Shown: one piece after another, positions 5,057-22,714 of the stretch | Layout: every line of letters starts with the position of its first letter | How positions within the stretch are numbered: the first letter of the stretch is position 1 | Origin: a virus | Length of the DNA stretch: 31,952 nucleotides | IMG/VR virus record: IMGVR_UViG_3300042447_000302 | Span: 1-31,952 of that record | Strand: one strand, 5' to 3' | Notes under the pieces: generated by a model | What the model was told of the DNA's origin: nothing | Databases searched by the model: none | What the model saw: the letters and a program-made list of their open reading frames with translations, nothing else | Translations under genes and position numbers: made by a program

Positions 5057-5719
5057 TTAAAAATGTTTTCGAGTGAATGAATAAATTGATGTTGTCGCCG
5101 TTGATTTTGTAGATGCTGCAACTGCTGATGATACTAATCGCCAGCTATTCGTCGTTGTGTTGGCGTTGGTTTCACCGAAATAAAATGCACCAGACACAAA
5201 TGGAAGTTCTGTAACAAAGTGCGCTGAATACGATTGGTACACTTGTGAAAGCGATACTGGTATCCAGTCATTGAAACCAAGATGCGATGTCGCTCTTAAA
5301 TTGGTTATGTTGTCTATTGTGTTATTCCAGTTGATTGAAGCACCGTTGTCAATAGCACTAAATGCCCATCCAGTAAGATTGTCAATGATGTAGTTGCTCA
5401 ATGCTCCAGTGAATGACATTCCAATAATCCTTCCAGATGCGTTACTATTCACACCAAGAGAATTTGTAAAACGATTCTTGTTTCCGAACGCGTTGTTGTA
5501 CTTCAACTTGAACCAGAAGTTCGTTGTGTCTGTATAGTCTAAATCTTGTATGACTGCTGGATTGATTGCATCTGATGAATAGTCATAGTAACCATTCTGA
5601 AAAGCCCAACCAGTGTCACCCACACGATACGATATTCTTTGCGTTGGTGTTGGTCGTCTGTAAAGTATTCCAGATGGTGTTACACCAGTAATTTCAACTT
5701 CAACATAATAATCTTTCAT
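5057..5719 (-). CDS. Putative tail adhesin / fibre protein
   Basis: A 220-aa Asn-, Ser- and Thr-rich protein. The second half (NLTGWAFSAIDNGASINWNN, then SHLGFNDWIPVSLSQVYQSY) resembles the DUF1566 / Lcl C-terminal type domain, with its G-x-x-D-W-x-P turn, found in tail fibres and bacterial adhesins. There is no signal peptide or membrane segment. It overlaps the upstream fibre-like fusion gene by 4 bases (ATGA) and is followed at once by the 105-aa gene. I infer a role in recognising host surface glycan. The domain assignment is moderate and rests on one motif. Confidence 0.5.
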   Translation of the reverse strand: MKDYYVEVEITGVTPSGILYRRPTPTQRISYRVGDTGWAFQNGYYDYSSDAINPAVIQDLDYTDTTNFWFKLKYNNAFGNKNRFTNSLGVNSNASGRIIGMSFTGALSNYIIDNLTGWAFSAIDNGASINWNNTIDNITNLRATSHLGFNDWIPVSLSQVYQSYSAHFVTELPFVSGAFYFGETNANTTTNSWRLVSSAVAASTKSTATTSIYSFTRKHF

Positions 5720-11812: not shown

Positions 11813-11834
11813 AGAAGCAAAGCTAATGTATTAA

Positions 11835-11851
11835 TGTTAATAATGTTAATA
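11835..11851. repeat. 17-nt motif TGTTAATAATGTTAATA, copy 1
   Basis: This exact 17-mer also occurs, on the other strand, at 29757-29773. It is made of two tandem TGTTAATA units. Both copies are in non-coding DNA directly ahead of a minus-strand gene block. Copy 1 is 24 bases before the ATG of the first cassette gene. It is a candidate operator or activator site. Confidence 0.5.
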
Positions 11852-12042
11852 CAAAAAGAAACAAAAAACAAACAGAAGAAAAGGTAAAGAAGAAAAGAAA
11901 AAGAAAGAAAAAAGCAACTAAAAAAGAATGAATCAATCTCTTGCTCAATAGAGCAGTTGCACGTTCCAAGCATTGGTGTATTGCAAGTGTGGGCTGCTTC
12001 CTCTGGTATAGCCATCAACCAGTTGTGTAGTATGTAAAAAAA

Positions 12043-12070
12043 AGAGCAGTAGTCCCACCACTACTGCTCT
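12043..12070 (-). terminator. Rho-independent terminator, minus strand
   Basis: A perfect 11-bp stem (AGAGCAGTAGT with ACTACTGCTCT) surrounds a 6-base loop. On the minus strand it is followed by eight T (the A-run at 12036-12043). It would end transcripts coming from the sigma-factor operon or from a promoter near 12.18 kb. There is no T-run on the plus-strand side. Confidence 0.85.
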
Positions 12071-12175
12071 CAAAGTTTCAAGAAGAAACCTACACACACA
12101 ACTAATCAATGGTGGGCTATTGAGTAGTTATGTAATGCGTGACAAATATTCAATGATTATTTTGAATGGCAAAGA

Positions 12176-12206
12176 AAAAGTTACACACGTTACGAACGGA
12201 AACAAA
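12176..12206 (-). promoter_or_regulatory. Possible Bacteroidetes-type promoter, minus strand
   Basis: On the minus strand TTTG (12206-12203) is followed after 19 bases by TAACTTTT (12183-12176), close to the -33 TTTG / -7 TAnnTTTG consensus. It lies between the two terminators, so a transcript would begin near 12170 and meet the 12043-12070 hairpin after ~100 bases. Either a small RNA or a read-through-controlled late leader would fit. Weak evidence. Confidence 0.3.
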
Positions 12207-12234
12207 AGAAGCCAGACTCGATTGCCTGACTTCT
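12207..12234 (-). terminator. Rho-independent terminator after the Cys-rich gene, minus strand
   Basis: On the minus strand AGAAGTCAG pairs with CTGGCTTCT (9 bp with one G-U) around a 10-base loop, followed by TTTTGTT. It lies ~50 bases after the stop at 12286 and would end the VRR-NUC / sigma / Cys-rich operon. Confidence 0.65.
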
Positions 12235-12285
12235 CTCTTTGAATAACCACACACTAAAACAAGGAAACTATAATGCAGCACAAAT

Positions 12286-12693
12286 CTAAGCATCCAGAAC
12301 TGATGCTTTCAATTTTGACACCAAATCTTTCAAACAAGGTTCGCACGATGTCCTTCTATGAGTATCACCCACCACCTTATCCGCATAGTCATAAAGCAGA
12401 TTATATTGTTCTTTGGTCAGTTCGTCATTTTTAATCTCACCTATCAACTTCTTGATTTGTTCTCTTTCTTGTTGAGTCAACTTACCAGTGCTTTTCCAGA
12501 ATTGATTTGGACAATACTGATTACTGAATTGAGTCTTGAGATATACATTGCATCCACAAGTGTGATATGTTCTCTTTTTGATTTTGTGAGTTTCTGGAAT
12601 GAATGCTTTTCCACACCAGCCTTTATTGAAGAATTGACAACCCTTGCAAATGGCTCTACGCTCATCTACTATTTGTTTTGCAGCGAACCACAT
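12286..12693 (-). CDS. Cys-rich putative zinc-binding protein
   Basis: A 135-aa protein. The N-terminal half has ERRAICKGCQFFNKGWCGKA, then YHTCGCNVYLKTQFSNQYCP. These Cys pairs are spaced for two zinc sites. A Lys/Glu-rich helical section (LTQQEREQIKKLIGEI) follows, and a last pair is in SCEPCLKDLV. Similar Cys-rich proteins are common in Bacteroidetes phages without known function. It overlaps the sigma-like gene by 32 bases, and no later ATG fits. It is the last gene before two terminators. Nucleic-acid binding or regulation is plausible but not shown. Confidence 0.65.
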   Translation of the reverse strand: MWFAAKQIVDERRAICKGCQFFNKGWCGKAFIPETHKIKKRTYHTCGCNVYLKTQFSNQYCPNQFWKSTGKLTQQEREQIKKLIGEIKNDELTKEQYNLLYDYADKVVGDTHRRTSCEPCLKDLVSKLKASVLDA

Positions 12694-13156
12694 ATGATTT
12701 AATTTTTGATTTGATTTTGTTTATGTATGTGTATAGGTAGTCAACAGAACAACCAGCTATTGCGCTCCAGTACTCATAGTCAAAGTCACCTTGAAGATAT
12801 GCATTGATAATGTACTGCTCGTGTTCTGGTAGCCTACTGATGGCAATGTCGAGCAGTTCAATGTTGAGAACGTCAGTCATCCCAGAATCATCGACATCAT
12901 CAATATGCTCGACATAACTTATTTGTTGCAGTCTGTATTGTCTATAAAATGGTGACGATGGAAAGTTCCACCCCATATACATTGCTCGATTGATGTAGCT
13001 GAATTGTTGTAAGTCGGGAAAAGTGAATACAATGTCGTTTTTTAAGTCCAGATAAGTGAGAGTGAAATGCAACAACTCATAAGCATCATCCGAAGTTGGC
13101 GCAATCTTGTGTGCGCTAATCAGTAGCTTGTTGTATGTATCACTTGAAATATTCAT
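12662..13156 (-). CDS. Sigma-70-like factor
   Basis: A 164-aa protein. The middle (FSYINRAMYMGWNFPSSPFY, then RQYRLQQISY) fits a shortened region-2-like part. Residues ~100-155 (LDIAISRLPEHEQYIINAYL, then DYEYWSAIAGCSVDYLYTYI and NKIKSKIKSYV) have the layout of sigma region 4, a helix-turn-helix that reads -35 type elements. Such small sigma-like proteins are frequent in Bacteroidetes phages. It overlaps VRR-NUC by 17 bases and the Cys-rich gene by 32. As the only sigma-like gene in the genome it is the prime candidate to switch on late or middle promoters. Confidence 0.6.
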   Translation of the reverse strand: MNISSDTYNKLLISAHKIAPTSDDAYELLHFTLTYLDLKNDIVFTFPDLQQFSYINRAMYMGWNFPSSPFYRQYRLQQISYVEHIDDVDDSGMTDVLNIELLDIAISRLPEHEQYIINAYLQGDFDYEYWSAIAGCSVDYLYTYINKIKSKIKSYVVRCKTNSR

Positions 13157-13505
13157 CTATTATTTTGATCGCTTCATCTGCACCTTTGCAAATGTATGCA
13201 GCATATCCATTTAGAAGTAGATGTGATTTCCATTGCTTCTGTTCTGGCGAAGCAACACCACCACTTACTCTTTTCATTTCAATAGCAAGCCCAGCATATC
13301 CTTTGCGCTGCTCGTAAATGAACAAGTCTGGGAAACCAGCTATATAACCCATCTGCTTCATCTTAATAGCTTGACGCATACTCGTTCTCATTCCACCAGC
13401 AGAAGCACAATATAGGACATTTGGATGAGCAGAACGTAGGTACTGGATGACTATTTTCTGCTCAATTTCCTCCAAAGGCACTATTTTTTTACTTTTTTTT
13501 ATCAC
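13140..13505 (-). CDS. VRR-NUC domain nuclease
   Basis: A 121-aa protein that is nearly all VRR-NUC domain. It has an N-terminal helix (EEIEQKIVIQYLRSAHPN), GGMRTSMRQAIKMKQMGYIA, then GFPDLFIYEQ (D60), AIEMKR (E76 and K78 of the PD-(D/E)xK site), SPEQKQW and the final GADEAIKIIDEYF helix. Such stand-alone proteins in phages cut branched or Holliday-like DNA during replication or before packaging. It is the first gene of the short leftward operon and is divergent from the early genes. Confidence 0.85.
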   Translation of the reverse strand: MIKKSKKIVPLEEIEQKIVIQYLRSAHPNVLYCASAGGMRTSMRQAIKMKQMGYIAGFPDLFIYEQRKGYAGLAIEMKRVSGGVASPEQKQWKSHLLLNGYAAYICKGADEAIKIIDEYFK

Positions 13506-13553
13506 TGATATTCAACGAGTTATAAATTATTTTTAAGAAAAACGAAAATAAAT

Positions 13554-13584
13554 TTTGTCAATCCGAAATGTTGCCATTTATTTG
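13554..13584 (+). promoter_or_regulatory. Probable early promoter, plus strand
   Basis: TTTG (13554-13557), 19 bases, then TTTATTTG (13577-13584) matches the Bacteroidetes -33/-7 pattern (TTTG, 19-21, TAnnTTTG) except for one base in the -7 box. It is in the only gap between divergent operons and would start RNA ~25 bases before the first early ATG at 13616. The matching leftward promoter is not clear. Confidence 0.5.
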
Positions 13585-13615
13585 CCTTCAGAAAGGAACA
13601 CAATAATACACACAA

Positions 13616-13816
13616 ATGACACACACAACCACAATCTATTATGTACAATTCAATTCTATGAATGGTAACATCAGCAACGTAAACGCTTATTCAACTCGTG
13701 AAGATGCTCTGAAGATTATCAATGCGATTTGCGAACTATTTAATATCGACAACTGGAATGGTCAAGAAGGTGGTGGTGTTGGTTACGACATCAGAATCGA
13801 ATTAGAAGTAATTTAA
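13616..13816 (+). CDS. Small early protein, unknown
   Basis: A 66-aa first gene of the early operon. It starts with short strands (TTIYYVQFNSMNG), then a helix (TREDALKIINAICELF), and ends with strand DIRIELEVI. This is a compact alpha-beta protein with no motif I recognise. First position after the early promoter suggests a host-takeover or anti-defence function, but that is inference. Confidence 0.65.
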   Translation: MTHTTTIYYVQFNSMNGNISNVNAYSTREDALKIINAICELFNIDNWNGQEGGGVGYDIRIELEVI

Positions 13817-13830
13817 TAATCAAATCAAAT

Positions 13831-13840
13831 AACACACACA
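13831..13840 (+). promoter_or_regulatory. CACACA translation leader (representative copy)
   Basis: AACACACACA sits directly before the ATG at 13841. Near-copies precede several other early ATGs: 14063-14074 (ATG 14078), 14279-14291 (ATG 14292), 14473-14484 (ATG 14485), and weaker ones before 13616, 14974, 15519 and 17437. None has a Shine-Dalgarno sequence. The late genes lack this leader. It probably serves initiation in place of a Shine-Dalgarno site. Confidence 0.55.
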
Positions 13841-14047
13841 ATGAGAACAAAACAGATGGACAGAAGGCTTACTTTTTATTCTGCTTTGTGGTTACATAGC
13901 AATAAGCAGTACAAAGACGTTGATATTATTCATCGTGCATATGTAGTGAATGGAAAAGTTTATGCGATTGACTACACAAATATTGAAGGAGTTGAATGTA
14001 TTGCTCAAAATACGGCTATCTGTGACAGAATAATAAATTTCATCTAA
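13841..14047 (+). CDS. Small early protein, unknown
   Basis: A 68-aa protein with a basic N-terminus (MRTKQMDRRLTFYSALWLHS) and a beta-like rest containing KVYAIDYTNIEG. It is preceded directly by the AACACACACA leader. No family is recognised. Confidence 0.6.
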   Translation: MRTKQMDRRLTFYSALWLHSNKQYKDVDIIHRAYVVNGKVYAIDYTNIEGVECIAQNTAICDRIINFI

Positions 14048-14077
14048 TCATAAATAACAAATAACACACACAACATT

Positions 14078-14272
14078 ATGAAAGTAGAAGTAATTGCATT
14101 CGCTGAAGTGTTGGAAATTTGCCCAGCACTTTTCAAAAGAATCAAGACTTATGAAGAAAGTCATTGCAGAATTTCCTTCGTATGCACAGAAAAAAAGTTC
14201 TCTGAAATTTACAAGGAAGTAAGAAACTCTGGAACTAATCCTTTTGCTCTAATGGCTTGGTCTAATTTTTAA
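14078..14272 (+). CDS. Small early protein, unknown
   Basis: A 64-aa protein. Alternating strands and helices (VEVIAFAEVLEICPALFKRI, then ISFVCTEKKFSEIYKEV) suggest a small alpha-beta fold. It is in line with its neighbours and has the CACACA leader. No known motif. Confidence 0.6.
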   Translation: MKVEVIAFAEVLEICPALFKRIKTYEESHCRISFVCTEKKFSEIYKEVRNSGTNPFALMAWSNF

Positions 14273-14291
14273 ATAAAATAACACACACACA

Positions 14292-14474
14292 ATGAGAACA
14301 CTTCCAAAGTACAAACAGAATCTTCGAATTAATGGAAGCGATGTATGGTCATATACCACAATCGTTGCAAAAATCGAAGGTAACACTTTAAAGCAACTGG
14401 GGTATTGGTCAATGACAACCCAGAAGCATATCAACTATGTAGCAAAATATTTCAATTTAACATTAATCAAATAA
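14292..14474 (+). CDS. Small early protein, unknown
   Basis: A 60-aa basic protein (MRTLPKYKQNLRINGSDVWS start). It has a beta segment YTTIVAKIEGNTLKQLGYWS and a C-terminal helix. It has the CACACA leader at 14279-14291. No family is recognised. Confidence 0.6.
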   Translation: MRTLPKYKQNLRINGSDVWSYTTIVAKIEGNTLKQLGYWSMTTQKHINYVAKYFNLTLIK

Positions 14475-14484
14475 CACACACAAC

Positions 14485-14910
14485 ATGAAAGAATTACTTT
14501 TAACCCTACACAAGCTGAGCAATCTTGCTCGTTATGCTTACACCAACGACAACAGAAAAACATTATTGGACGATGGTCAGTTGAAGATTGAAACGTATTG
14601 CGCTGAAACCATTAAATTTGTTTACTTCAAATTCGATGGTCGTGATGAAATTAGAACTGCCATTTGCAGTAGTCGTTCAGAATATTTTGCTTGGGAAATG
14701 ACCACTTGGAATATTGAGGATGTCACTTTTGATGGTATGGTTGAGAAGCTAAATAGCGATGATTTATATCAATCTTTGGCTGGAGAGTTTGACCAAATCA
14801 CGATTGAATCAATGAAAGATGAACTGCAAAAGTTGAAAGAAAAAAGTGCCAACGAATACCAATCAGCAGTTGACAAGCATCTGAAAATCACAAAGAGATT
14901 GACTGCATAA
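14485..14910 (+). CDS. Early protein, unknown
   Basis: A 141-aa acidic protein. A first helix (LLLTLHKLSNLARYAYTND) leads into strands (IKFVYFKFDGRDEIRTAICS), then a helical C-terminal half (ESMKDELQKLKEKSANEYQS) likely to form a coiled coil. It has the CACACA leader and is followed by a hairpin-bearing gap of 63 bases. No known motif. Confidence 0.65.
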   Translation: MKELLLTLHKLSNLARYAYTNDNRKTLLDDGQLKIETYCAETIKFVYFKFDGRDEIRTAICSSRSEYFAWEMTTWNIEDVTFDGMVEKLNSDDLYQSLAGEFDQITIESMKDELQKLKEKSANEYQSAVDKHLKITKRLTA

Positions 14911-14938
14911 CCAAAAAAATCAAATCATTAAATAGGGG

Positions 14939-14957
14939 GTGCGCATCTGTAACGCAC
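14939..14957 (+). other. Short hairpin before the 175-aa gene
   Basis: GTGCG and CGCAC can form a 5-bp stem around a 9-base loop, after a run of five G. No T-run follows, so it is not a standard terminator. It could affect mRNA stability or translation of the gene at 14974. Confidence 0.25.
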
Positions 14958-14973
14958 ATAAATAAACAACACA

Positions 14974-15501
14974 ATGACACAAAGAATTATTAAAGCAATC
15001 GACATCTTCTTAGATGCCATTAACGAAGGAACACTGGCAAAAGGAAACTGCTCTGCTTGCGCAGTAGGCAACCTTGTAGCGCACGGCTTGGGTGGAAAAG
15101 TTAGCATAGTAAACACTGGGGTTGGACGTTACGCTAAGTTTGAACACCCTTCTGATATTTGGTTAGATAATAGTGATTGGTCAAACGCTTTTTGTACCGA
15201 TGGTGGTCATCAAATAAAAATACCACGCAGTTTTGGCAATCAAGAAGTCATAAAGAACATCGAAGCAACGGACTTCACGCTGGAAGAATTGATGCAGATA
15301 GAATTTGCTTTTGAAACCAATACAGAGATTCGATTGCGCGAGTATTATTTTCGTTCACCACAAGACATTCGTGCTGACCAAATCAAGGGTTTGGAAGCAG
15401 TAGTGAAAGTGATGCTCACTTTCGAAGATGGTGTTCCAGCAACCGATGAAGTAGTGAAAGAGATATTCACGAACAAGGCAAACCTTATTCCAATCGTATA
15501 A
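14974..15501 (+). CDS. Conserved-type phage protein, unknown function
   Basis: A 175-aa protein. Near residues 24-42 it has KGNCSACAVGNLVAHGLGGK, with two Cys and a Gly-rich turn. Acidic helices (DFTLEELMQIEFAFETN) and a C-terminal half with GLEAVVKVMLTFEDGVP follow. I recall proteins with a CxACAVGNL motif in Bacteroidetes phages and mobile elements, without known function. It lies in the early block of small genes. Confidence 0.65.
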   Translation: MTQRIIKAIDIFLDAINEGTLAKGNCSACAVGNLVAHGLGGKVSIVNTGVGRYAKFEHPSDIWLDNSDWSNAFCTDGGHQIKIPRSFGNQEVIKNIEATDFTLEELMQIEFAFETNTEIRLREYYFRSPQDIRADQIKGLEAVVKVMLTFEDGVPATDEVVKEIFTNKANLIPIV

Positions 15502-15518
15502 CATAACACAGACACACA

Positions 15519-15947
15519 ATGACAAACACAATCAACACACCACTTTCTATATTCGCTGAATTAGGTCAGCTAATGCAAGAAGATTATCAAGGTCTAATCT
15601 TTGAAACCATTAACTGCGGAAATTTTGATTTACGAGGAGCAGATAAAATCGTGACATTTACATCACGCAAGGAATATTCTCAAAACGTATGGATATCGGT
15701 AATGGAAAGCGGATGGGCTACTATTCATATGGATAACAAATTTGACGCGAATACTGGAACGCTGGAAGAAGTTGACTGGTTAGCGTGGGCAGAAGATTTG
15801 CTCCATTCTTACAAGACTGCAAATCACAATAAGATTCTCAAAGAGATTTCCTATCAAGCGCACCTTCGCGCATCAGAAAGTGATAATTGTTATCGTGAAG
15901 CATTGGAAAGAGTAAACGATAAAATCAGAATCAATGAAAGCAAATAA
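15519..15947 (+). CDS. Early protein, unknown
   Basis: A 142-aa acidic protein. Beta-like centre (DKIVTFTSRKEYSQNVWISV, then GWATIHMDNKFD) and helical C-terminus (LAWAEDLLHSYKTANHNKIL). Its layout (strands, then an acidic helix) is similar to the 141-aa protein at 14485, so the two could be distant relatives. It overlaps the next small gene by 14 bases. Confidence 0.6.
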   Translation: MTNTINTPLSIFAELGQLMQEDYQGLIFETINCGNFDLRGADKIVTFTSRKEYSQNVWISVMESGWATIHMDNKFDANTGTLEEVDWLAWAEDLLHSYKTANHNKILKEISYQAHLRASESDNCYREALERVNDKIRINESK

Positions 15948-16095
15948 ACGCAATTACATCTGTGTTCAGAGTAGTTACTACCCAACAGATAGACTGAACT
16001 ACAATGAGCAGTCAAAGTACATAGCAGATAACTCACCACTATCTGCTTACGACAGAATTAAGTCAATAGCTAAAGAATTATTACAATCAATTTAA
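15934..16095 (+). CDS. 53-aa hypothetical protein
   Basis: The ATG at 15934 lies inside the end of the previous gene. The frame reads MKANKRNYICVQSSYYPTDR, then a basic helical end (AYDRIKSIAKELLQSI), stopping with TAA at 16093-16095. It fills an otherwise empty 160-base gap before the SSB-like gene, and the product is Tyr-rich. Overlap with the upstream gene and close spacing support it; there is no homology evidence. Confidence 0.45.
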   Translation: MKANKRNYICVQSSYYPTDRLNYNEQSKYIADNSPLSAYDRIKSIAKELLQSI

Positions 16096-16107
16096 TTAAT
16101 CAAATCT

Positions 16108-16764
16108 ATGAGTCAAACAAAAGGATTTCACGCTCCAGTAGGTGAATCAAAACCAAAGGAAATTGTACCATCTGGCAATCACGTTGCAACTTGCTATCAA
16201 GTCATTGACTTGGGAACTGTTGAAGGACAATGGGAAGGACAACCAACATTCAAACGCAAAATCAGATTGACATTCGAATTGCCAAACGAACTTCGTGTGT
16301 TCAGCGAAGAAAAAGGAAAGCAGCCATTAGTCATTAGTCGTGAGTTCACGTTCTCAATGCACGAGAATAGCGTATTGCGACCATTCATTCAGTCTTGGAT
16401 AGGTAAGACTATGAATGATGATGATGCTCGTCAATTTGACTTTTCCTCTTTATGTGGAATGTCTGGATTGCTTAATGTTATTCACGCGAATAAAGATGGC
16501 AAGACATACGCTAACATTAGCACGATGACACCACTAATAACTGGAATGTCAGCACCAGCACCTATCAATCCTCAAGTAGTAATATTCCTTGACAACTTTG
16601 AATATTTCAACTGGGATGGATATAATGCTTTGCCAGAATTTATGCAGAAGAAGATTGCTGAATCTCCAGAATGGGGTTACTTACAGAACTGGATGTCTGA
16701 ACAAAAAGGAAAGCCAACTCAACCAGAACCAACAACAACACAAGACGATGACCTACCATTCTAA
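16108..16764 (+). CDS. ssb: Single-stranded DNA-binding-like protein
   Basis: A 218-aa protein. The N-terminal ~150 residues have OB-fold-like strands (PSGNHVATCYQVIDLGTVEG, then FKRKIRLTFELPNELRVFSE) and a conserved FTFSMHENSVLRPFIQSWIG. A Pro/Gln/Thr-rich linker leads to the acidic tail DDDLPF, the hallmark SSB C-terminus that recruits replication partners. It is larger than E. coli-type SSB and fits phage replication OB proteins. It sits directly before the DnaA-like gene. A single-strand annealing role is the alternative. Confidence 0.75.
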   Translation: MSQTKGFHAPVGESKPKEIVPSGNHVATCYQVIDLGTVEGQWEGQPTFKRKIRLTFELPNELRVFSEEKGKQPLVISREFTFSMHENSVLRPFIQSWIGKTMNDDDARQFDFSSLCGMSGLLNVIHANKDGKTYANISTMTPLITGMSAPAPINPQVVIFLDNFEYFNWDGYNALPEFMQKKIAESPEWGYLQNWMSEQKGKPTQPEPTTTQDDDLPF

Positions 16765-16969
16765 CAACGAGAGTTGGAAGTCATATGTCAAGTCAAACAT
16801 TGGGAGCGCAGTTGACCTTGCTGCGCTACTCAATGTGACTGCTCCAACTGGTAGGACATATTTGAAACATCCAAGAAGATTGACGATTGAGCAAGTGTAT
16901 ATCTTGTCCATCAAGACGGAAACACCTTTGAAAGAATTAACCACATTAATCATACTACACGATGAGTAA
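16748..16969 (+). CDS. Small HTH-like putative regulator
   Basis: A 73-aa protein. The ATG at 16748 overlaps the SSB-like gene by 17 bases; a longer frame from 16589 is a shadow. The core (AVDLAALLNVTAPTGRTYLK, then HPRRLTIEQVYILSIKTETP) has the length and hydrophobic pattern of a helix-turn-helix of the XRE/Cro type. It could be a transcription regulator of the early genes. Its stop overlaps the DnaA-like ATG by 8 bases. Confidence 0.5.
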   Translation: MTYHSNNESWKSYVKSNIGSAVDLAALLNVTAPTGRTYLKHPRRLTIEQVYILSIKTETPLKELTTLIILHDE

Positions 16970-17423
16970 AAATGACAAGTACTATTCTCCAGAAAGATTT
17001 ATGGAATTTATTATTCCAGAACGTCAAGATGACTTTGCTGAAGAATTTAATAAGATGTTCAATGGCAAGTTGTACGCTACACCAGTAAGAGTTCGAAGAT
17101 TGCTTGACTACTTATTTGAATGGTCAATTAATGAGTACTCAATCAAGCCAGAAGAAATACTCAACCAGACGCGACAACAACATATTACTATTATTAGACA
17201 TATAATGATGTTCGTGGTGTACGAGAACTTCAAAGGTGTTATAAGTCTAACTGATGTAGGCAAGATGTTCAATAGACGTGACCATTGTTCAGTGCTTCAC
17301 GCAAGGACTAAGTGCATCCAGAATTATCAGTTTGATGTAGTGCTGCGAGAACGGATGGATAGCTTGAATAAACATCTTTCTGACAAAGGAATTTATGTTT
17401 TACAGAAGTACGTTAATCAATAA
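16962..17423 (+). CDS. Free-standing DnaA domain IV-like DNA-binding protein
   Basis: A 153-aa protein. Residues ~60-125 match the DnaA C-terminal DNA-binding domain: IKPEEILNQTRQQHITIIRH, a helix VVYENF, SLTDVGKMFNRRDHCSVLHA and RTKCIQNY. The segment DHCSVLHARTK is the DnaA signature that reads DnaA boxes. There is no AAA+ domain. N-terminal residues 1-58 are unassigned. In a phage it may mark the phage origin and recruit host replication proteins, or compete with host DnaA. It is placed between SSB-like and probable loader genes. I did not find a clear DnaA-box cluster. Confidence 0.8.
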   Translation: MSKNDKYYSPERFMEFIIPERQDDFAEEFNKMFNGKLYATPVRVRRLLDYLFEWSINEYSIKPEEILNQTRQQHITIIRHIMMFVVYENFKGVISLTDVGKMFNRRDHCSVLHARTKCIQNYQFDVVLRERMDSLNKHLSDKGIYVLQKYVNQ

Positions 17424-17436
17424 ACAATAACACACA

Positions 17437-17835
17437 ATGAAAGCAGAAGAATATTTTTATGCTCACTCAAAGGCAAATGAGCAAGGATGCGTACCACCAG
17501 AGGAATGCATTAGAATGATGGAATTATACGCTGACCATCGAAAGAAAGAATCGAGCAGATTCACACCACCAACAGAAACAGAAGTGATTGAATATTTTGT
17601 TCACAGAACTGAAGGTAGCTGGGAAGATGGAAGAAGATTCGCGCAAAAGTTCATCGCACACTACGAACAGACTGAATGGCACTATGGTAAAAGGAAGATG
17701 AAGGATTGGAAACGTGCAGCGATATCTGCTTGGGATATGAATAAGTTTGTAACACAAAAAACATTGAGCAATGGAACATTTGGAAAAGGTACATCAGTTG
17801 ATGGATTCAACAGACTGGCAGAACAACTTGGGTAA
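17437..17835 (+). CDS. Putative replication protein (helicase-loader-associated type)
   Basis: A 132-aa protein. Its centre (FTPPTETEVIEYFVHRTEGS, then FAQKFIAHYEQTEWHYGKRK and MKDWKRAAISAWDMN) matches a module often found at the end of phage and transposon replication proteins in Bacteroidetes, with a conserved W-x-x-A-x-x-x-W. It is preceded by a CACACA leader and overlaps the next gene by 65 bases. A role in primosome assembly is inferred from the neighbours. Confidence 0.55.
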   Translation: MKAEEYFYAHSKANEQGCVPPEECIRMMELYADHRKKESSRFTPPTETEVIEYFVHRTEGSWEDGRRFAQKFIAHYEQTEWHYGKRKMKDWKRAAISAWDMNKFVTQKTLSNGTFGKGTSVDGFNRLAEQLG

Positions 17836-18556
17836 GGTTTATAATGCTGATTTCAGAAAGATTATTGCAGCAAGCAAAGATGAATTGATTGCAATGGTTG
17901 ACCAAAGAAAATTCCTTGAGTTGTATTATGCTCAACTTGTATTTCACCAGATAGCACAACCAGAACGAATTGAACCAGTATTGCAATCTCATTCGTTTAT
18001 TCAAGACCACTTTTCGTGGTGTAGTTGTTCTGACTTCAGAATTGCCTTTGAAATGAATGCTGCTGGTAAACTGAACGCAAAGCACAACTCATTTAAGTCA
18101 TTCGATAATATGTTTATCGGAAACGTCTTGAGTGACTACAAAGAGTTAAGGAATGATGCAATGAAGAAATGGAATGAGATTAATGTCAACTATGTAGATG
18201 CTTCGAAACAACTTGCACCATCAACCGAATCAATAGACTACTTGCAAGACATATTCGATAAAGATATTGATTATGCCAAAGAAGGAAAGTTCAGAAGTGC
18301 CTATATGCTTGGAACGAGAATGTATGACTGGCTCTATTCCAGCAACAATGCAACAGATGAATCTTGGTCTGAAGAAGAATGGTCAAGCGCAAAGAAGCAA
18401 GCGAAAAAAAATATAGCTGATGAACAAGAGTTGACAAGGACAAAAATGCAAAGGATAACCAGCAACGAAAGAATGCACCAGCTATACAAGGAATCAGTAA
18501 TGAATGAAATGAAAAAATTATTATACGTTCAATTTTTAAAAAACAAAATCAAATAA
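17771..18556 (+). CDS. Putative replication-associated protein
   Basis: A 261-aa helical protein. The middle has DFRIAFEMNAAGKLNAKHNS, then FKSFDNMFIGNVLSDYKELR, a pattern I associate with proteins encoded beside replication genes in Bacteroidetes phages and conjugative elements. The C-terminus is highly charged (EEEWSSAKKQAKKNIADEQE). The ATG at 17771 overlaps the previous gene by 65 bases; an ATG at 17801 shortens this to 35. It may be a helicase loader, which is inference from position after SSB and DnaA-like genes. Confidence 0.55.
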   Translation: MEHLEKVHQLMDSTDWQNNLGKVYNADFRKIIAASKDELIAMVDQRKFLELYYAQLVFHQIAQPERIEPVLQSHSFIQDHFSWCSCSDFRIAFEMNAAGKLNAKHNSFKSFDNMFIGNVLSDYKELRNDAMKKWNEINVNYVDASKQLAPSTESIDYLQDIFDKDIDYAKEGKFRSAYMLGTRMYDWLYSSNNATDESWSEEEWSSAKKQAKKNIADEQELTRTKMQRITSNERMHQLYKESVMNEMKKLLYVQFLKNKIK

Positions 18557-18563
18557 CAAAACA

Positions 18564-18896
18564 ATGGAAACAACAATTTACAAAACAATGGAAACTGCCT
18601 TGAACAAGATGGGCAAGACTTTTACTGCAAACGAGTTTTATCGTGTGTGTAGAGTATTAAATATTCCAGAACATTATCTAAAGAATGGTCACGCACAGAA
18701 ATTTTTATTTCAGAATTGCGAACTTGTGAGCAGAAAAGTTTACAGAAAGAAAGTCGTTGTACGTCCTAGACCAGATTTTCACGAGCAAGTTGTCACAACA
18801 ACTGAAACTTCTGATGTCCAAAAGATGATTAATCATCTGACTCAATTAGGATATCGAGTTATGATGCCAAAAACGGAATGGGTAGATGTTAATTAA
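18564..18896 (+). CDS. Hypothetical basic protein
   Basis: A 110-aa protein. The first half (ETALNKMGKTFTANEFYRVC) could be a helix-turn-helix; a basic section VYRKKVVVRPRPDF and a C-terminal QKMINHLTQLGYRVMMPKTE follow. It lies between replication genes and the winged-helix-like gene ahead of the large terminase. It may bind DNA. No family is recognised. Confidence 0.6.
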   Translation: METTIYKTMETALNKMGKTFTANEFYRVCRVLNIPEHYLKNGHAQKFLFQNCELVSRKVYRKKVVVRPRPDFHEQVVTTTETSDVQKMINHLTQLGYRVMMPKTEWVDVN

Positions 18897-18908
18897 AATC
18901 ACGCACCA

Positions 18909-19262
18909 ATGATAACAAACTTTGAGAACGTCACCTATAAATTGACTGACGAAGAAATGAAACACTTGCCTACTATAATAGCAATGCTGAAGCAAAGATA
19001 CGGAAGGGATAAAGCATTATCTTGCACCCACATTCAAGAGCAAGTGAACATCAGTCAAGCACGAATCAGAATCATTATTAATTACATTCGAAGAAATGGA
19101 TTAGTACCTGACTTGTGTGCCAGCAGCAAGGGATATTATGTCGCAAGAACGCAGCAAGAGTTCCACAAGTATGTTCAGTCATTGACAGATAGAATTAACT
19201 CTATACAATCGGTTCTGGATGCAATCAATCACAATCATTCACCACAATACGAATTGATATAA
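18909..19262 (+). CDS. Winged-helix-like DNA-binding protein directly before large terminase
   Basis: A 117-aa protein. Residues ~37-75 (KALSCTHIQEQVNISQARIR, then IIINYIRRNGLVPDLCASSK) form a helix-turn-helix followed by a beta wing (GYYVARTQQEF). A C-terminal helix (LTDRINSIQSVLDAI) could serve oligomerisation. Its TAA overlaps the large-terminase ATG (TAATG), so the two are translated together. It might regulate terminase, help it bind DNA, or stand in for a second small-terminase-like factor. A typical small terminase exists at 8211-8534. Confidence 0.65.
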   Translation: MITNFENVTYKLTDEEMKHLPTIIAMLKQRYGRDKALSCTHIQEQVNISQARIRIIINYIRRNGLVPDLCASSKGYYVARTQQEFHKYVQSLTDRINSIQSVLDAINHNHSPQYELI

Positions 19263-20566
19263 TGTATCAGTTTGAGTACACCCAAAGGCAGCAAGAAGCA
19301 TTGAGTTATTTGTCAATCAACAATACTGATTGCGAACTGCTGCTCTTTGGTGGTGCTGCTGGTGGTGGCAAGTCTTATCTTGGTTGTGCGTGGCAGATAT
19401 CAAGACGATTGAAATACGCAAACACCAGAGGATTGATAGGTAGATGCGAATTGAAGAAGTTGAAACAGACAACGATGAAAACCTTTTGGAAGATATGCGT
19501 TGACATTGGTCTGGTCAAAGACATTCACTACACCTATAACCAGCAAGAACAGACAATCAAGTTCTTCAATGGAAGTGAAATTGTGTTGATGGATTTGAGA
19601 GATATGCCAAGTGACGTTGAGTTTACAAGACTTGGTTCGCTTGAAATTACAGACTACTTTGTTGACGAAGTTGCTGAAGTGAGTAAACGTGCTATTGAGA
19701 TTCTGGATTCTCGTGTACGATACAACTTGATAGATGATAAGCCAAAAGGATTAATGACTTGCAATCCGACCAAAGGATGGTTATATAACGAGTTCTTTGA
19801 TGCACATCGTTCTGGAAACTTAAGATTTGATAGAGCATTCATTCGTTCCCTACCAGATGACAATCCACACTTACCACAATCGTATCTCGACAAGCTATCA
19901 AGGCTATCAGAACGTGACAGAAAAAGATTGAAAGATGGTGACTGGGATTATGATGATAGCAATGACAGATTGTATCATTATGACGATTTGCTTCGCTGCT
20001 TTAGGGACGAGATTGTAGGCAATAAGACGAAATATATCACTGCTGACATTGCTGCTCTTGGAAATGACAAGACGATAATTGGATTGTGGGATGGTATGAC
20101 ATTGCTTGAGATTCATAAACTGGAACACAAGTACCCAAATGAAGTTGCTGACTACATTCGCCAACTATCCATTCAGCACAATGTTCGATTGTCAAATATA
20201 GTTGTCGATGCTGATGGCTTGGGAATTGGTGTGGTTGGAATACTTAAATGTCAAGCATTCAATAATGGTGGTCGTTCTACTGAACCAGAGATATATTTGA
20301 ATCTGAAAAGTGAATGCTACTTCAAGATATCAGATGACATTGCTAACAATTCAATCACGTTTATCTGCAAGTCATACAAGAGTGATATCATTAAGGAATT
20401 GGAAGTTGTAAGGAATTACACTGCCAACACAGAAAAAAGAAGGCAAGTGACACCGAAGGATGAAATAAAAAGAATGAACGGGTTTTCTCCAGACATTGCT
20501 GATATGATTATGATGAGAAAATACTTTGATTTATATCCAAATTACAGAAGATATGGTGTGAGATAA
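19262..20566 (+). CDS. terL: Terminase large subunit
   Basis: A 434-aa protein, of usual length. The ATPase half has Walker A GGAAGGGKS (residues 30-38), LIGRCELKKLKQT, the Walker B-like YFVDEVAEV (D135, E136), and the C-motif-like TCNPTKGW (~166-173). The RNase H-like nuclease half has ITADIAALGNDKT (D262), NIVVDADGLGIGV (D316) and the last acidic site in GFSPDIADMIMMR. It packages DNA by ATP hydrolysis and cuts it at headful or cos sites. It sits in the rightward early operon, on the opposite strand from all other packaging and head genes, which is unusual. Confidence 0.95.
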   Translation: MYQFEYTQRQQEALSYLSINNTDCELLLFGGAAGGGKSYLGCAWQISRRLKYANTRGLIGRCELKKLKQTTMKTFWKICVDIGLVKDIHYTYNQQEQTIKFFNGSEIVLMDLRDMPSDVEFTRLGSLEITDYFVDEVAEVSKRAIEILDSRVRYNLIDDKPKGLMTCNPTKGWLYNEFFDAHRSGNLRFDRAFIRSLPDDNPHLPQSYLDKLSRLSERDRKRLKDGDWDYDDSNDRLYHYDDLLRCFRDEIVGNKTKYITADIAALGNDKTIIGLWDGMTLLEIHKLEHKYPNEVADYIRQLSIQHNVRLSNIVVDADGLGIGVVGILKCQAFNNGGRSTEPEIYLNLKSECYFKISDDIANNSITFICKSYKSDIIKELEVVRNYTANTEKRRQVTPKDEIKRMNGFSPDIADMIMMRKYFDLYPNYRRYGVR

Positions 20567-20593
20567 TAACAACAATAACAAAACAAAAAACAA

Positions 20594-20860
20594 ATGAGTA
20601 AACAAACAGCGCTTCAAGCGCTTATTGAATGGGCAATATCTCTAAAAGATAGAGAGCAACAATGCACAGATTGGATTGTAATAAAACATAAAGCAGAAGA
20701 ATTGCTACTAATGGAGAAGGAGCAGATTGAAGATGCTTATGATGACGGAGTTTCAGAAGGTGAAATGAGAGGTGAATCTGACTATGAAAATGAAGATAGG
20801 TTTGATAGTTGTACATCAAGCACGACTTACTACAACGAAACATATGGAAGTGACAAATGA
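20594..20860 (+). CDS. Small acidic phage protein
   Basis: An 88-aa protein. It starts SKQTALQALIEWAISLKDRE, then KAEELLLMEKEQIEDAYDDG, with a Ser/Thr/Tyr-rich acidic end. This layout is common in small proteins of Bacteroidetes phages with no known function. A-rich leader (aaacaaaaaacaaATG). It overlaps the next gene by 4 bases. Confidence 0.65.
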   Translation: MSKQTALQALIEWAISLKDREQQCTDWIVIKHKAEELLLMEKEQIEDAYDDGVSEGEMRGESDYENEDRFDSCTSSTTYYNETYGSDK

Positions 20861-21072
20861 CATCAATAGAAAAAGCAAAAGAACTTATTGAGCAGTTTAC
20901 ATTTAGTTGTAGAGAATGCGATAATGCAAAACTATCTGCTCTGATAGCAGTAGATGAAATAATTAAGGCTCTCGAAACATATGATGAGATAAATAATACC
21001 TTTGAATTGCAGAATATGGATAGTGATTTTCGGTACTGGGAAAGAGTAAAACAAGAAATATATAAACAATAA
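20857..21072 (+). CDS. Small helical phage protein
   Basis: A 71-aa protein (MTSIEKAKELIEQFTFSCRE, then ALIAVDEIIKALETYDE and RYWERVKQEIYKQ). Its helical layout ending in YWxxVKxEI is frequent in Bacteroidetes phages with unknown role. It overlaps the previous gene by 4 bases and is followed 4 bases later by the next. Confidence 0.7.
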   Translation: MTSIEKAKELIEQFTFSCRECDNAKLSALIAVDEIIKALETYDEINNTFELQNMDSDFRYWERVKQEIYKQ

Positions 21073-21076
21073 ACAA

Positions 21077-21478
21077 ATGACAACACAAATTGAAAATGAA
21101 ATCATCAAAATTATTGATGGTGTAGAACAAGGAAATGCTAATGCTGGTCAAGCCTACATAGCATTAAAAAAACTATCCGAACTCATAGATGATTCTATGA
21201 AACAAATCAAGCCAGAAGCACACATCGCATTCTCAAGATTTGGCGAAAAGAATTTCTCTGCATTCGGAGCAAAAATTCAAATGAAGAATGAAGCGTCAAG
21301 ATGGACATACAAAGGATGCACGCTTGTCGAAGAAACTCAAAAGAAGCTGAAACTCTACCAAGAGTTATCACAAAAAGCAGCAGAAACAAATGATGAGATA
21401 TATGATTCATCTGGAATCAGAATTGAACCAGCAGTAAAGATTGAAGGTGCTGAAACATTTGCAATATCATTCAAATGA
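21077..21478 (+). CDS. Conserved-type phage protein, unknown
   Basis: A 133-aa protein. An N-terminal helix (NANAGQAYIALKKLSELIDD), then FGAKIQMKNEASRWTYKGCT, then a helical stretch (KKLKLYQELSQKAAETNDEI). I recall similar proteins in Bacteroidetes phages, where an A-x-I-Q-x-K-N-x-x-x-x-W stretch is conserved, without known function. Its stop overlaps the next ATG by 4 bases. Confidence 0.65.
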   Translation: MTTQIENEIIKIIDGVEQGNANAGQAYIALKKLSELIDDSMKQIKPEAHIAFSRFGEKNFSAFGAKIQMKNEASRWTYKGCTLVEETQKKLKLYQELSQKAAETNDEIYDSSGIRIEPAVKIEGAETFAISFK

Positions 21479-21852
21479 AATTGGTAACTAATTTTCTTCT
21501 GATGTGTTTAGCATTCCTACTATCACCTTTGCTGGTAGTAGGTATGCTCTATGCATTCTTGTCTTATCTATTTTCTTTTCGATTCAGAAGATATTGGAAT
21601 AAAGTAAGCATCTATTTTCGTGCTTGCGCCATATCCATTGACCAACTTGGAAACGTCTTTTGCGCTGAACTATTCAATGACTTATTAATCAAAGATGATA
21701 GTAAACCATTTGGTGATGAAGATGAAACAATCTCATCTGTGCTTGGAAAGAATCAACTCAATAACAACTTGACAAAATTAGGTCAGTTGTTGAACTCACT
21801 TTTAGACCTACTCGATAACAATCATTCAATTAATTCAATAGAAAATGAATAA
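21475..21852 (+). CDS. Membrane protein, unknown
   Basis: A 125-aa protein. Residues ~5-33 form one long or two short transmembrane helices (NFLLMCLAFLLSPLLVVGML). The basic section FSFRFRRYWNKVSIYFR follows, and the rest is cytoplasmic or polar with acidic DDSKPFGDEDETI and helical Leu/Asn-rich end. It overlaps both neighbours by 4-8 bases. It may be a phage inner-membrane protein, such as a superinfection or lysis helper, but nothing specific shows it. Confidence 0.6.
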   Translation: MKLVTNFLLMCLAFLLSPLLVVGMLYAFLSYLFSFRFRRYWNKVSIYFRACAISIDQLGNVFCAELFNDLLIKDDSKPFGDEDETISSVLGKNQLNNNLTKLGQLLNSLLDLLDNNHSINSIENE

Positions 21853-22213
21853 TATTTTTGATAGAATTATGCAGATTCTTGTAATTCTCTTTTTTGCGCT
21901 TATTATTTATTGCAGCATAACAACTTCAGTAAGGAATGACCGCTTGAAGAAACAAGAGATTAAACTTTTGAAAGAAGCTATCATCAAAAAGCAACACTTA
22001 ATTGATAGCATAACAACAACAATATCTACACGACAAGACACCATTCGGATTATTGAACAACGTCAAAATATTTATACAACCAAAACTATTCACAATGAAA
22101 AAATCATTCTTCTTGCTTCTGATAGCATCAACAATATTATGTATCAAAACAACAAGCGCAAGTTCTTTGAAGAATGGATGCAAGGCAGATACACTCCAGC
22201 CAGATATAAGTGA
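21845..22213 (+). CDS. Spanin-like or accessory lysis membrane protein (N-terminal TM plus coiled coil)
   Basis: A 122-aa protein. One N-terminal transmembrane helix at ~10-27 (ILVILFFALIIYCSI), then a heptad-rich helix (RLKKQEIKLLKEAIIKKQHL, then SITTTISTRQDTIRIIEQRQ) that would be in the periplasm. This is the layout of inner-membrane spanins (Rz). The second gene of the pair begins inside its end in another frame. It is at the end of the early-strand operon, opposite the holin and amidase. Function by architecture only. Confidence 0.5.
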   Translation: MNNIFDRIMQILVILFFALIIYCSITTSVRNDRLKKQEIKLLKEAIIKKQHLIDSITTTISTRQDTIRIIEQRQNIYTTKTIHNEKIILLASDSINNIMYQNNKRKFFEEWMQGRYTPARYK

Positions 22214-22520
22214 TGCTCAAGCCTTCAATCTTTGTTACAATTCATTGGTGTTCTGGTGGATGGATAGCCAGCAAAAAGACACCATCATTTATCAAATGAA
22301 CAAGATTATTCTTTCCTATAAAGAAGTGATTGGAATAGAAGCATCAAGCAAGGAAGATTTGAAAAGGCTATATGACCTTCAAAAATCGCTCGAAAATGAA
22401 TCGATGCAATTTGCCTACGATAAAGAGAAAAGAAGAAAAGGAAGGTGGCGAAAAACTGCTGCAATAACAACTCTCGTTGCAATAGTTGAGGGTGCTGCAA
22501 TCTATTTTTTAGTTCGCTGA
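22095..22520 (+). CDS. Secreted protein with C-terminal membrane anchor, nested in the spanin-like gene
   Basis: A 141-aa protein. The ATG at 22095 is chosen because the product then starts with a signal peptide, MKKSFFLLLIASTILCIKTT followed by SASS (possible signal-peptidase site); an upstream TTG at 22053 is unlikely. The middle holds two Cys-containing turns and DTIIYQMNKIILSYKEVIG, then a basic KEKRRKGRWRK and a final transmembrane helix AAITTLVAIVEGAAIYFLV. Similar proteins occur in Bacteroidetes phages. It overlaps the gene before it by 119 bases in another frame and converges with the 67-aa gene. It does not have a clear lipobox. Confidence 0.55.
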   Translation: MKKSFFLLLIASTILCIKTTSASSLKNGCKADTLQPDISDAQAFNLCYNSLVFWWMDSQQKDTIIYQMNKIILSYKEVIGIEASSKEDLKRLYDLQKSLENESMQFAYDKEKRRKGRWRKTAAITTLVAIVEGAAIYFLVR

Positions 22521-22712
22521 AATTCCTAAATTGTTGGAATCAATTTCCATATTCAAGAACTCACCTTCGTTATAGGTTGACTTGAGCAGATATCTGACTT
22601 GTGCTTCACGAATAGTATAGCCCAAGACAACATATGGGTTCTTTTCTGTATCTGTTTTCAGATATACTATCTGACCAATTTTGAAACTTACTTGTATTTC
22701 GTATGACCACAT
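22509..22712 (-). CDS. Small protein at end of late operon
   Basis: A 67-aa protein. Beta-rich (SFKIGQIVYLKTDTEKNPYV, then VLGYTIREAQVRYLLKST), like small conserved proteins of Bacteroidetes phages that end late operons. No known role. It overlaps the convergent plus-strand gene by 12 bases, with no clear terminator between. Confidence 0.6.
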   Translation of the reverse strand: MWSYEIQVSFKIGQIVYLKTDTEKNPYVVLGYTIREAQVRYLLKSTYNEGEFLNMEIDSNNLGISAN

Positions 22713-22714
22713 AA

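What the first reader, a model, noticed from the sequence alone, without database searches (positions are those of the whole stretch)
13600..17437. Repeated CACACA leader before early start codons
AACACACACA(A)-ATG occurs before at least four consecutive small genes, with weaker forms before four others, at almost constant distance from the ATG. Late genes do not have it and rely on overlap. Bacteroidetes rarely use Shine-Dalgarno sites, so this may be a phage-specific initiation enhancer or a target for a phage or host RNA-binding protein to favour early genes.
Basis: seen in the sequence. Interest (0 to 1): 0.5.

Follow-up and report, generated by a model that had tools for sequence, protein, structure and literature searches.

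The report
CACACA leaders before phage early genes
A virus that probably infects Bacteroidota bacteria puts a similar, unstructured CACACA-rich stretch in front of most early genes that cannot borrow ribosomes from the gene before, most likely as its own way to start protein synthesis, and a conserved candidate small-RNA locus nearby might target these stretches.

Summary
ACACACA lies within 25 nt upstream of 7 of 49 curated starts but only 4 of 1226 non-start ATGs. All four AACACACACA and all five TAACACACA lie on the rightward ('early') strand before ATGs. All 7 starts belong to the 13 uncoupled rightward genes; none is among 8 coupled rightward or 28 leftward starts. Alternation exceeds what A/C composition gives (7 leaders versus 0.28 expected).

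Best reading: an SD-less, single-stranded A/C leader that lets the 30S subunit bind uncoupled starts; a clade-specific dialect of the Bacteroidota A-rich leader with ACA-enhancer content. Two kin contigs share it; 27 loci with 51-61%-identical terminases and four cultured relatives mostly have other A-rich words. It is no general host habit: at most 3 hits per genome in 395 Bacteroidota genomes.

New: the noncoding gap 11813-12285 (minus) holds two conserved hairpin-terminator RNA candidates with GU-rich segments complementary to leaders; in one relative the match is 16 nt, leader plus start codon. A phage-coded, GcvB-like regulator is a serious but unproven addition. Gene-content junctions sit at leaders, but a control shows this is not specific.

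The parts
13600..13615 (+). leader of gene 13616 (acaataatacacacaa), first gene of the rightward block; weaker form
13825..13840 (+). leader tcaaataacacacaca, directly before ATG 13841
   Evidence: a 19-base word AATCAAATAACACACACAA (13823) recurs at 14465
14062..14077 (+). leader taacacacacaacatt of gene 14078 (5 nt between tract and ATG)
14276..14291 (+). leader aaataacacacacaca, directly before ATG 14292
14469..14484 (+). leader aaataacacacacaac of gene 14485; contains the stop codon of gene 14292
14958..14973 (+). weaker leader ataaataaacaacaca of gene 14974
15503..15518 (+). leader ataacacagacacaca of gene 15519
17421..17436 (+). leader taaacaataacacaca of gene 17437; in L043 the aligned leader precedes an extra gene and the 17437 orthologue, coupled there, has none
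18548..18563 (+). A/C leader atcaaataacaaaaca of gene 18564 (same 16 nt in L040)
18893..18908 (+). A/C leader ttaaaatcacgcacca of gene 18909; ttaaaatcacacacca in L040 and L043
20578..20593 (+). A/C leader acaaaacaaaaaacaa of gene 20594
21061..21076 (+). A/C leader tataaacaataaacaa of gene 21077
13616..14474 (+). four small ORFs of 60-68 aa (13616, 13841, 14078, 14292), none with a tblastn match in kin L040
   Evidence: no Pfam match
16108..16764 (+). uncoupled gene without the leader; 218 aa ending DDDLPF, perhaps single-strand DNA binding (inferred from the tail)
16962..17423 (+). DnaA C-terminal-domain protein (PF08299, E 4.7e-13), coupled start without leader
12281..12312 (-). Bacteroidota-type promoter-like site TTG-N21-TAGATTTG; TANNTTTG kept in L040 and L041 (its TA lies in the stop codon of gene 12286-12693), TTG kept in L041 but not L040
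   Evidence: consensus recalled, not mapped
12201..12277 (-). candidate small RNA 1: GU-rich segment 12259-12241 (E1), then hairpin 12233-12208 and T-rich tail
   Evidence: z -2.9; 10 of 10 pairs kept in 3 genomes, 3 with changes on both sides
12036..12135 (-). candidate small RNA 2: stem-loop with GU-rich arm (12108-12089, E3), hairpin, terminator 12070-12043 with T-run, loop-loop complementarity CCCACC/GGTGGG
   Evidence: (z -5.5)

Best explanation
The repeated element is the ribosome landing site of the phage's rightward block. Most genes there that do not overlap or abut their upstream neighbour carry a leader of about 12-20 nt made almost only of A and C (typical form AATAACACACACA-ATG). 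A and C cannot pair with each other, so the stretch stays single-stranded; [quoted passage not shown] Genes whose starts overlap the previous gene are reinitiated by coupling and need no leader. The CACACA spelling is this phage clade's own dialect of the A-rich leader used across Bacteroidota and their phages. Shown: position, strand, association with uncoupled starts, excess alternation, predicted openness, absence in a coupled orthologue, turnover with retained A/C composition in kin. Inferred: that it raises initiation, that bS1 is the receptor, that coupling serves the other genes, that the genes are early.
For: Enrichment at starts and strand bias. Uncoupled + starts (13) have on average 3.15 ACA triplets and 13.6 of 16 A/C upstream, coupled + starts (8) 0.88 and 10.5, leftward starts (28) 0.36 and 10.25; 13 or more A/C in 11 of 13, 1 of 8 and 4 of 28. 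Alternation beyond composition: 7 leaders with ACACACA versus mean 0.28, maximum 4, in 5000 shuffles of the leaders' own bases. Predicted unpaired probability -18..+5: 0.78 uncoupled +, 0.51 coupled +, 0.59 leftward, 0.46 at 150 sampled non-start + strand ATGs. SD-like words 0 of 50 starts. Natural experiment: in L043 the leader aligned with that of 17437 precedes an extra gene, and the 17437 orthologue, overlapping it, has no leader. In L040, 6 of 7 orthologous leaders keep 12 or more of 16 A/C, 2 of 7 keep ACACACA. No TTG-N17..21-TANNTTTG promoter-like site on the + strand in 13400-22600. Passages read: ACA triplets upstream of the start raise translation in Salmonella (PMC3879156); A at -3, -6, -12, -13 and low structure favour initiation in Flavobacterium johnsoniae (PMC6847099).
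Against: No expression data. 16108 is uncoupled but lacks the leader, and 5 of 7 L040 orthologues of uncoupled genes have no ACACACA, so the exact core is dispensable. C at -6 occurs in 38% of the 13 uncoupled leaders, whereas A to C at -6 lowered a T4 gene 32 reporter by about 70% in E. coli. A plain A-rich leader, as before some leftward genes, would also be unstructured, so openness alone does not explain the CA alternation. The leader words of the more distant relatives are A-rich without CACACA, so the core is not needed in this phage group at large. The host is unknown.
Confidence: 0.68

Rival explanations
1. The leaders are in addition the shared target of a phage-coded small RNA. The noncoding gap 11813-12285 in the divergent leftward block makes one or two hairpin-terminated RNAs whose GU-rich segments pair with the CA-rich leaders and start codons and shut off (or tune) the early genes when the leftward genes are on, as GcvB does with CA-rich start regions in enterobacteria.
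For: The gap holds 3 of the 6 (AC)3 words found on the + strand outside 13600-17437. Two hairpin-plus-T structures found by the terminator scan (4 sites versus 0.5 in shuffles), z -2.9 and -5.5 for the two RNAs, kept in L040 and L041; 3 of 10 pairs of the first and 2 pairs of the second terminator change on both sides. TANNTTTG kept before RNA 1 in all three. L041's segment is perfectly antisense over 16 nt to leader plus start codon of L043:787, same contig; best matches of other leaders are 9-14 nt. Duplex energies favour uncoupled early starts over other starts: E1 p 9e-5, 0.0025, 0.011 and E3 p 2e-4, 0.01, 0.098 in window, L040, L041+L043. Longest-match score puts the region first of 1228 windows in L040 and first of 1858 in L041+L043; in the window a neighbouring stretch (11853-12112) is first of 2390 and the E1 stretch 20th.
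Against: In the window the matches are 10-11 nt, no longer than best matches of other leaders elsewhere; by number of 9-nt matches another place (5101-5360) does better; E3 and E1 rank 9 and 16 of 6956 segments, 6 and 4 of 3638 in L040, E1 3 of 5436 in L041+L043, so other segments pair as well or better. Any GU-rich segment would favour CA-rich leaders. The GU-rich arm of RNA 2 lies in a stem whose 9 outer pairs never vary, so it may be kept for folding. L041's 16-nt match can be read on the + strand as a leader-ATG copy before a 59-aa ORF, although that frame has stops in L040. The -33 TTG is missing in L040. Only 3 related genomes; 37 of 500 shuffles reach the covariation of RNA 1. A model of RNA 2 finds nothing in six unrelated loci with CACACA leaders.
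Confidence: 0.22
2. The leaders are boundary sequences for swapping gene cassettes: recombination between repeated leaders adds or removes small genes and keeps the repeat alive.
For: 16 of 18 alignment ends, or 9 of 11 junction clusters, between the window and kin lie within 30 nt of an uncoupled ATG, 0 near coupled starts. A 19-base perfect repeat (13823, 14465) flanks three genes absent from L040, where one leader joins the two flanks.
Against: Control on 158 qualifying pairs among 27 loci without CACACA leaders: of 1004 (not independent) alignment ends, 197 lie at uncoupled starts (41.5 expected) and 347 at coupled starts (37.8 expected), so junctions at gene starts are general and need no repeat. 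Does not explain strand and ATG registration.
Confidence: 0.1
3. Simple mutational by-product: CA-dinucleotide slippage or A/C-rich composition.
For: CA repeats are slippage-prone (recalled); leader lengths vary.
Against: Strand- and start-specific; excess over composition; recurs at starts in other phage contigs: 10 of 130 loci of the ATG-ending patterns have 3 or more such leaders (L015/L033/L039 and L003/L018 look like duplicates, so about 7 kinds) versus 0 of 92 loci found only by the reversed pattern.
Confidence: 0.04
4. Transcription signal: each leader is part of a promoter or a binding site for a phage regulator.
For: A protein with a weak sigma-factor match is encoded next to the block.
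Against: No Bacteroidota promoter-like pair on the + strand in 13400-22600; sigma-70-like sites at shuffle level (30 versus 36.0); the tract abuts the ATG with 0-5 nt.
Confidence: 0.04

Closest known systems
Bacteroidota A-rich (Kozak-like) leaders, e.g. Flavobacterium johnsoniae (PMC6847099, passages read)
   Same: No SD; unstructured, A-rich region upstream of ATG; A common at -3, -12, -13
   Different: Alternating CACACA core, C frequent at -2, -4, -6; a near-identical word repeated before consecutive genes
ACA translation-enhancer motifs of yifK and dppA mRNA and their GU-rich regulator GcvB (PMC3879156, passages read)
   Same: Several ACA triplets just upstream of the start; a GU-rich small-RNA candidate complementary to them
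   Different: No SD sequence next to the ACAs; phage genes; RNA and pairing unproven; no enhancer assay
Start-Associated Sequences of cluster K mycobacteriophages (PMC3203893, passages read)
   Same: Short non-palindromic word repeated a few nt upstream of ATG, mainly one orientation, non-structural genes, unrelated genes share it
   Different: Sequence unrelated; SAS contains AGGAG, this has no SD element; SAS is a 13-mer consensus, this is a variable A/C tract
T4-type early promoter stem-loop cassettes (recalled; the primary paper was not seen, only a listing of papers holding its title phrase)
   Same: Repeated regulatory boundary between small early genes that come and go
   Different: No promoter found in the leaders; junction enrichment not specific

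Membership tests
Bacteroidota SD-less A-rich leader | No Shine-Dalgarno-like word upstream of starts | tested here: met
   0 of 50 starts
Bacteroidota SD-less A-rich leader | Low secondary structure around the start | tested here: met
   0.78 unpaired at 13 uncoupled starts versus 0.46 at 150 non-start ATGs
Bacteroidota SD-less A-rich leader | A at -3, -6, -12, -13 | tested here: inconclusive
   62%, 54%, 69%, 77% A in 13 uncoupled leaders; C is 31% at -3 and 38% at -6
Bacteroidota SD-less A-rich leader | Host is a Bacteroidota | tested here: inconclusive
   terminase 40% to Flavobacterium phage 11b, 55% over part of its length to a contig of a Flavobacteriaceae MAG; host itself unknown
Start-Associated Sequences (cluster K mycobacteriophages) | 13-bp consensus containing AGGAG | tested here: not met
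   no GGAG, GAGG, AGGA or GGGA at -16..-4 in 50 starts; leaders read directly
Start-Associated Sequences (cluster K mycobacteriophages) | Repeated, one orientation, few nt before ATG, non-structural genes | tested here: met
ACA enhancer | Multiple ACA triplets near the start | tested here: met
   mean 3.15 in 16 nt at 13 uncoupled starts
ACA enhancer | Mutation lowers translation | not testable with these tools
   needs reporters
GcvB-like multi-target small RNA | Independent transcript with intrinsic terminator | tested here: inconclusive
   conserved hairpins with T-runs and a promoter-like site; no RNA data
GcvB-like multi-target small RNA | Single-stranded GU-rich pairing region complementary to CA-rich start regions | tested here: inconclusive
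   complementarity above average but not unique; arm of RNA 2 is in a stem
GcvB (Rfam) | Match to a described RNA family | tested here: not met
   no Rfam match in the window at gathering threshold

The most novel reading that the evidence does not exclude
A phage-made operon-wide RNA switch: near-identical CACACA start leaders act both as SD-less ribosome landing sites and as a common address for a small RNA coded in the divergent leftward block, so that one antisense RNA can turn off many uncoupled early genes at once in a host that does not use Shine-Dalgarno pairing. Seeds and leaders drift together in related phages (16-nt perfect match in one of them).
Probability: 0.2. Interest if true: 0.8.

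Novelty: new variant of a known kind. Interest (0 to 1): 0.5.

Why it matters
How Bacteroidota ribosomes pick start codons without Shine-Dalgarno pairing is still partly open. A phage that spells one leader over and over, only where coupling cannot help, gives a natural set of start sites to test, and hints that phage lineages each evolve their own leader dialect. If the nearby RNA does pair with the leaders, it would be a compact phage example of one RNA controlling many genes through a shared start sequence, and the leader could serve as an expression part for Bacteroidota.

Tried and rejected
Host-wide usage: not supported. AACACACACAN{0,2}ATG gave 98 matches (my count by eye) in 395 Bacteroidota genomes, 72 of them with any, at most 3 each; the reversed pattern gave 51 (by eye). 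The window has 3 such matches in 32 kb. In 14 genomes reached through prophage-like loci a looser pattern was also rare. A cluster of matches in a Barnesiella genome turned out to be an intergenic repeat, not leaders.

Pairing of the CA tract with 16S rRNA: no ACACAC complement in one Flavobacterium 16S locus with flanks (locus fetched). Only one 16S was tested.

Leader-bound recombination as a specific mechanism: undercut by the control.

Annotation of the small leader genes: no Pfam match; no tRNA, no Rfam match in the window. tblastn of one L015 and one L001 protein found nothing in phage records. The L009 terminase is nearest to a marine uncultured phage and Roseobacter phages, so CACACA leaders are probably not confined to Bacteroidota phages, though L009's host is unknown.

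Literature: no description of CACACA leaders in Bacteroidota phages appeared in the listings (listings only, partly truncated; the library lacks most subscription papers).

Small errors made: one search used 16751 instead of 16748 for one coupled start (recounted). Left out of the curated list: GTG 13505 (ATG 13391 used), TTG/GTG ORFs and doubtful ORFs in 11813-12290, 22053/22095, and 31929 at the record's end. One structure string was off by one and was recounted. MAFFT misaligned the L041 hairpin in A4, so the trimmed alignment A5 was used. Cultured phages phi10:1 and Versailles were read only to base 50,000.


Full report
What the window is. The window is the whole of a virus record of 31,952 bases; its completeness is not known and an ORF begins 24 bases from its right end. 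Portal and other virion proteins are on the leftward strand; a rightward block (13616 to about 22500) holds small unknown genes, a DnaA C-terminal-domain protein and the large terminase. The terminase is 40% identical to that of Flavobacterium phage 11b, 55% to part of one on a Flavobacteriaceae MAG contig, and 98-99% to those on three viral contigs, two of which (L040/L044 and L041/L043) cover the early region. No start has a Shine-Dalgarno-like word (0 of 50). A Bacteroidota host is likely but inferred.

AACACACACA occurs four times and TAACACACA five times, all on the + strand, all just before ATGs. Seven of 49 curated starts, but 4 of 1226 other ATGs, have ACACACA within 25 nt; with automatic gene calls it is 7 of 54 against 0.22 expected. 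The 7 are 13616, 13841, 14078, 14292, 14485, 15519 and 17437. The gap between tract and ATG is 0-5 nt.

The rule behind it is coupling. Thirteen rightward genes start at least 3 nt after the previous stop; 12 of them have 12-16 of 16 upstream bases A or C, the exception being 16108 with 9. With the threshold at 13 the counts are 11 of 13, against 1 of 8 coupled rightward and 4 of 28 leftward starts; ACACACA is found in 7, 0 and 0 of them. The core is more than composition: shuffling each leader's own bases gives 0.28 such leaders on average, never more than 4 in 5000 trials, against 7 observed. The leaders are predicted to be open (0.78 unpaired, against 0.51, 0.59 and 0.46 for coupled, leftward and non-start sites).

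Relatives show turnover with constraint. In kin L040 and L041/L043 uncoupled starts carry related but not identical leaders such as AAATAACACACAACACA-ATG and AATAATACACACA-ATG. Where L043 has an extra gene between the orthologues of 16962 and 17437, the aligned leader stands before the extra gene, and the 17437 orthologue, overlapping it, has none. Of 7 L040 orthologues of uncoupled genes, 6 keep 12 or more A/C but only 2 keep ACACACA. The 27 loci with terminases 51-61% identical have no ACACACA leader in 227 uncoupled starts but strong A-rich words such as AAACAA and AATAAA; four cultured relatives have their own words (phi10:1 AACTAA in 20 of 55; 11b AAATAA in 16 of 40) and one ACACACA leader among 202 uncoupled starts. 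So each lineage seems to have its own dialect.

Wider distribution. Of 130 viral loci found through patterns ending in ATG, 10 have three or more CACACA leaders (several look like duplicates of one contig type, leaving about 7 kinds); of 92 found only by the reversed pattern, none has even two. One carrier, L009, has a terminase near marine Roseobacter-phage ones, and one pair (L003/L018) shows GGAG after the tract, with SD-like words at 13 of 22 L003 starts. In 395 Bacteroidota genomes the pattern is rare: 98 matches, at most 3 in a genome, against 51 for the reversed pattern (counts by eye); the window alone has 3.

How it probably works. In these hosts the anti-SD is concealed and initiation depends on low structure and upstream adenines (PMC6847099, passages; PMC10783764, passages). 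In Salmonella, ACA triplets upstream of the start are strong translation enhancers, tentatively through protein S1 (PMC3879156, passages). A CACACA tract at the ATG combines both. I infer that it recruits 30S subunits to starts that cannot be served by coupling. The C at -6 and the exact alternation are not explained by openness alone.

An unexpected neighbour. Looking for other CA words led to the 473-nt gap 11813-12285 on the leftward strand, which carries three of them in antisense, that is GUGUGU in a leftward RNA. The 700-nt stretch around it is 86% identical in L040 and 73% in L041. The terminator scan finds both hairpin-plus-T sites there on the leftward strand (4 sites in all, one of them nested in another and one on the + strand, against 0.5 in shuffles); z-scores of the two RNAs are -2.9 and -5.5. 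The first hairpin keeps all 10 pairs in three genomes, three of them through changes on both sides, although 37 of 500 shuffles do as well with so few sequences. The second terminator has two such pairs, beside a stem containing the GU-rich arm, and complementary loops that hold less well in L041. A TANNTTTG element is kept just upstream in all three, its TTG partner in two. A model of RNA 2 finds only the three kin genomes among 43 sources at E below 0.5; six unrelated loci with CACACA leaders give nothing. A pattern scan of viral contigs finds only the same kin. Most of the more distant relatives are fragments that may not include the place.

Does it target the leaders? For: a 16-nt perfect complement to leader plus start codon in L041/L043, better duplex energies with uncoupled early starts than with other starts in all three genomes for E1 and in two of three for E3, and high complementarity by longest-match score (first of 1228 windows in L040, first of 1858 in L041+L043, first of 2390 for 11853-12112 in the window, which includes a T-rich part; the E1 window ranks 20th). 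Against: 10-11 nt matches in the window are ordinary, other segments pair as well or better, any GU-rich segment would favour CA-rich leaders, the arm of RNA 2 is in a stem, and the 16-nt match may be a leader copy on the other strand before a 59-aa ORF. I rate targeting at about one in five.

Recombination. The 19-base repeat at 13823 and 14465 flanks three genes absent from L040, and 9 of 11 junction clusters lie at uncoupled starts. But among the more distant relatives junctions crowd at all gene starts, coupled ones most. Cassette exchange happens at gene borders; the CACACA repeat need not cause it.

Verdict. A real, start-specific, clade-specific leader; most likely a translation-initiation element, a new variant of a known kind, with a candidate RNA regulator next door that deserves an experiment.

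Noticed in passing
window 12036-12285, - strand: Two tandem hairpin-terminated noncoding RNA candidates in a 473-nt gap, conserved in L040 and L041, with loop-loop complementarity CCCACC/GGTGGG in the second; no Rfam match.
   Followed up: partly
window 11853-11960, - strand: Long T/C-rich tract (TTTTTTCTTTCTTTTTC...) before gene 11812, conserved in kin; complementary to A-rich leaders, function unknown.
   Followed up: no
window 14930-14960, + strand: GGGGGTGCGCATCTGTAACGCAC, a G-rich stretch with a short inverted repeat between genes 14485 and 14974, unusual in this A/C-rich block.
   Followed up: no
L282 (Cellulophaga phage phi10:1): AACTAA occurs in 20 of 55 uncoupled leaders (1.1 expected): another phage-specific repeated start word.
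   Followed up: partly
L015, L033, L039; L009; L001; L004; L020; L097: Other phage contigs with three or more CACACA leaders each, GC 0.40 to 0.61.
   Followed up: partly
L003 and L018: CACACACA tract followed by GGAG before the ORF start: a combined ACA-plus-SD leader.
   Followed up: no
L093 8500-9100; L094 8240-9370 (Barnesiella genome): Intergenic repeat families with CACACA words beside GTAGGGGCGAGTGGAAGCTCGCC units.
   Followed up: no
window 12662-13156, - strand: Protein with a weak sigma-factor match (PHROG 1740, E 2.7e-4) near the head of the leftward block; could drive late genes.
   Followed up: no
window 13100-23000: Terminator-like sites exceed shuffles (11 versus 5.0, sd 2.3), 8 of 11 on the - strand within the rightward block.
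   Followed up: no
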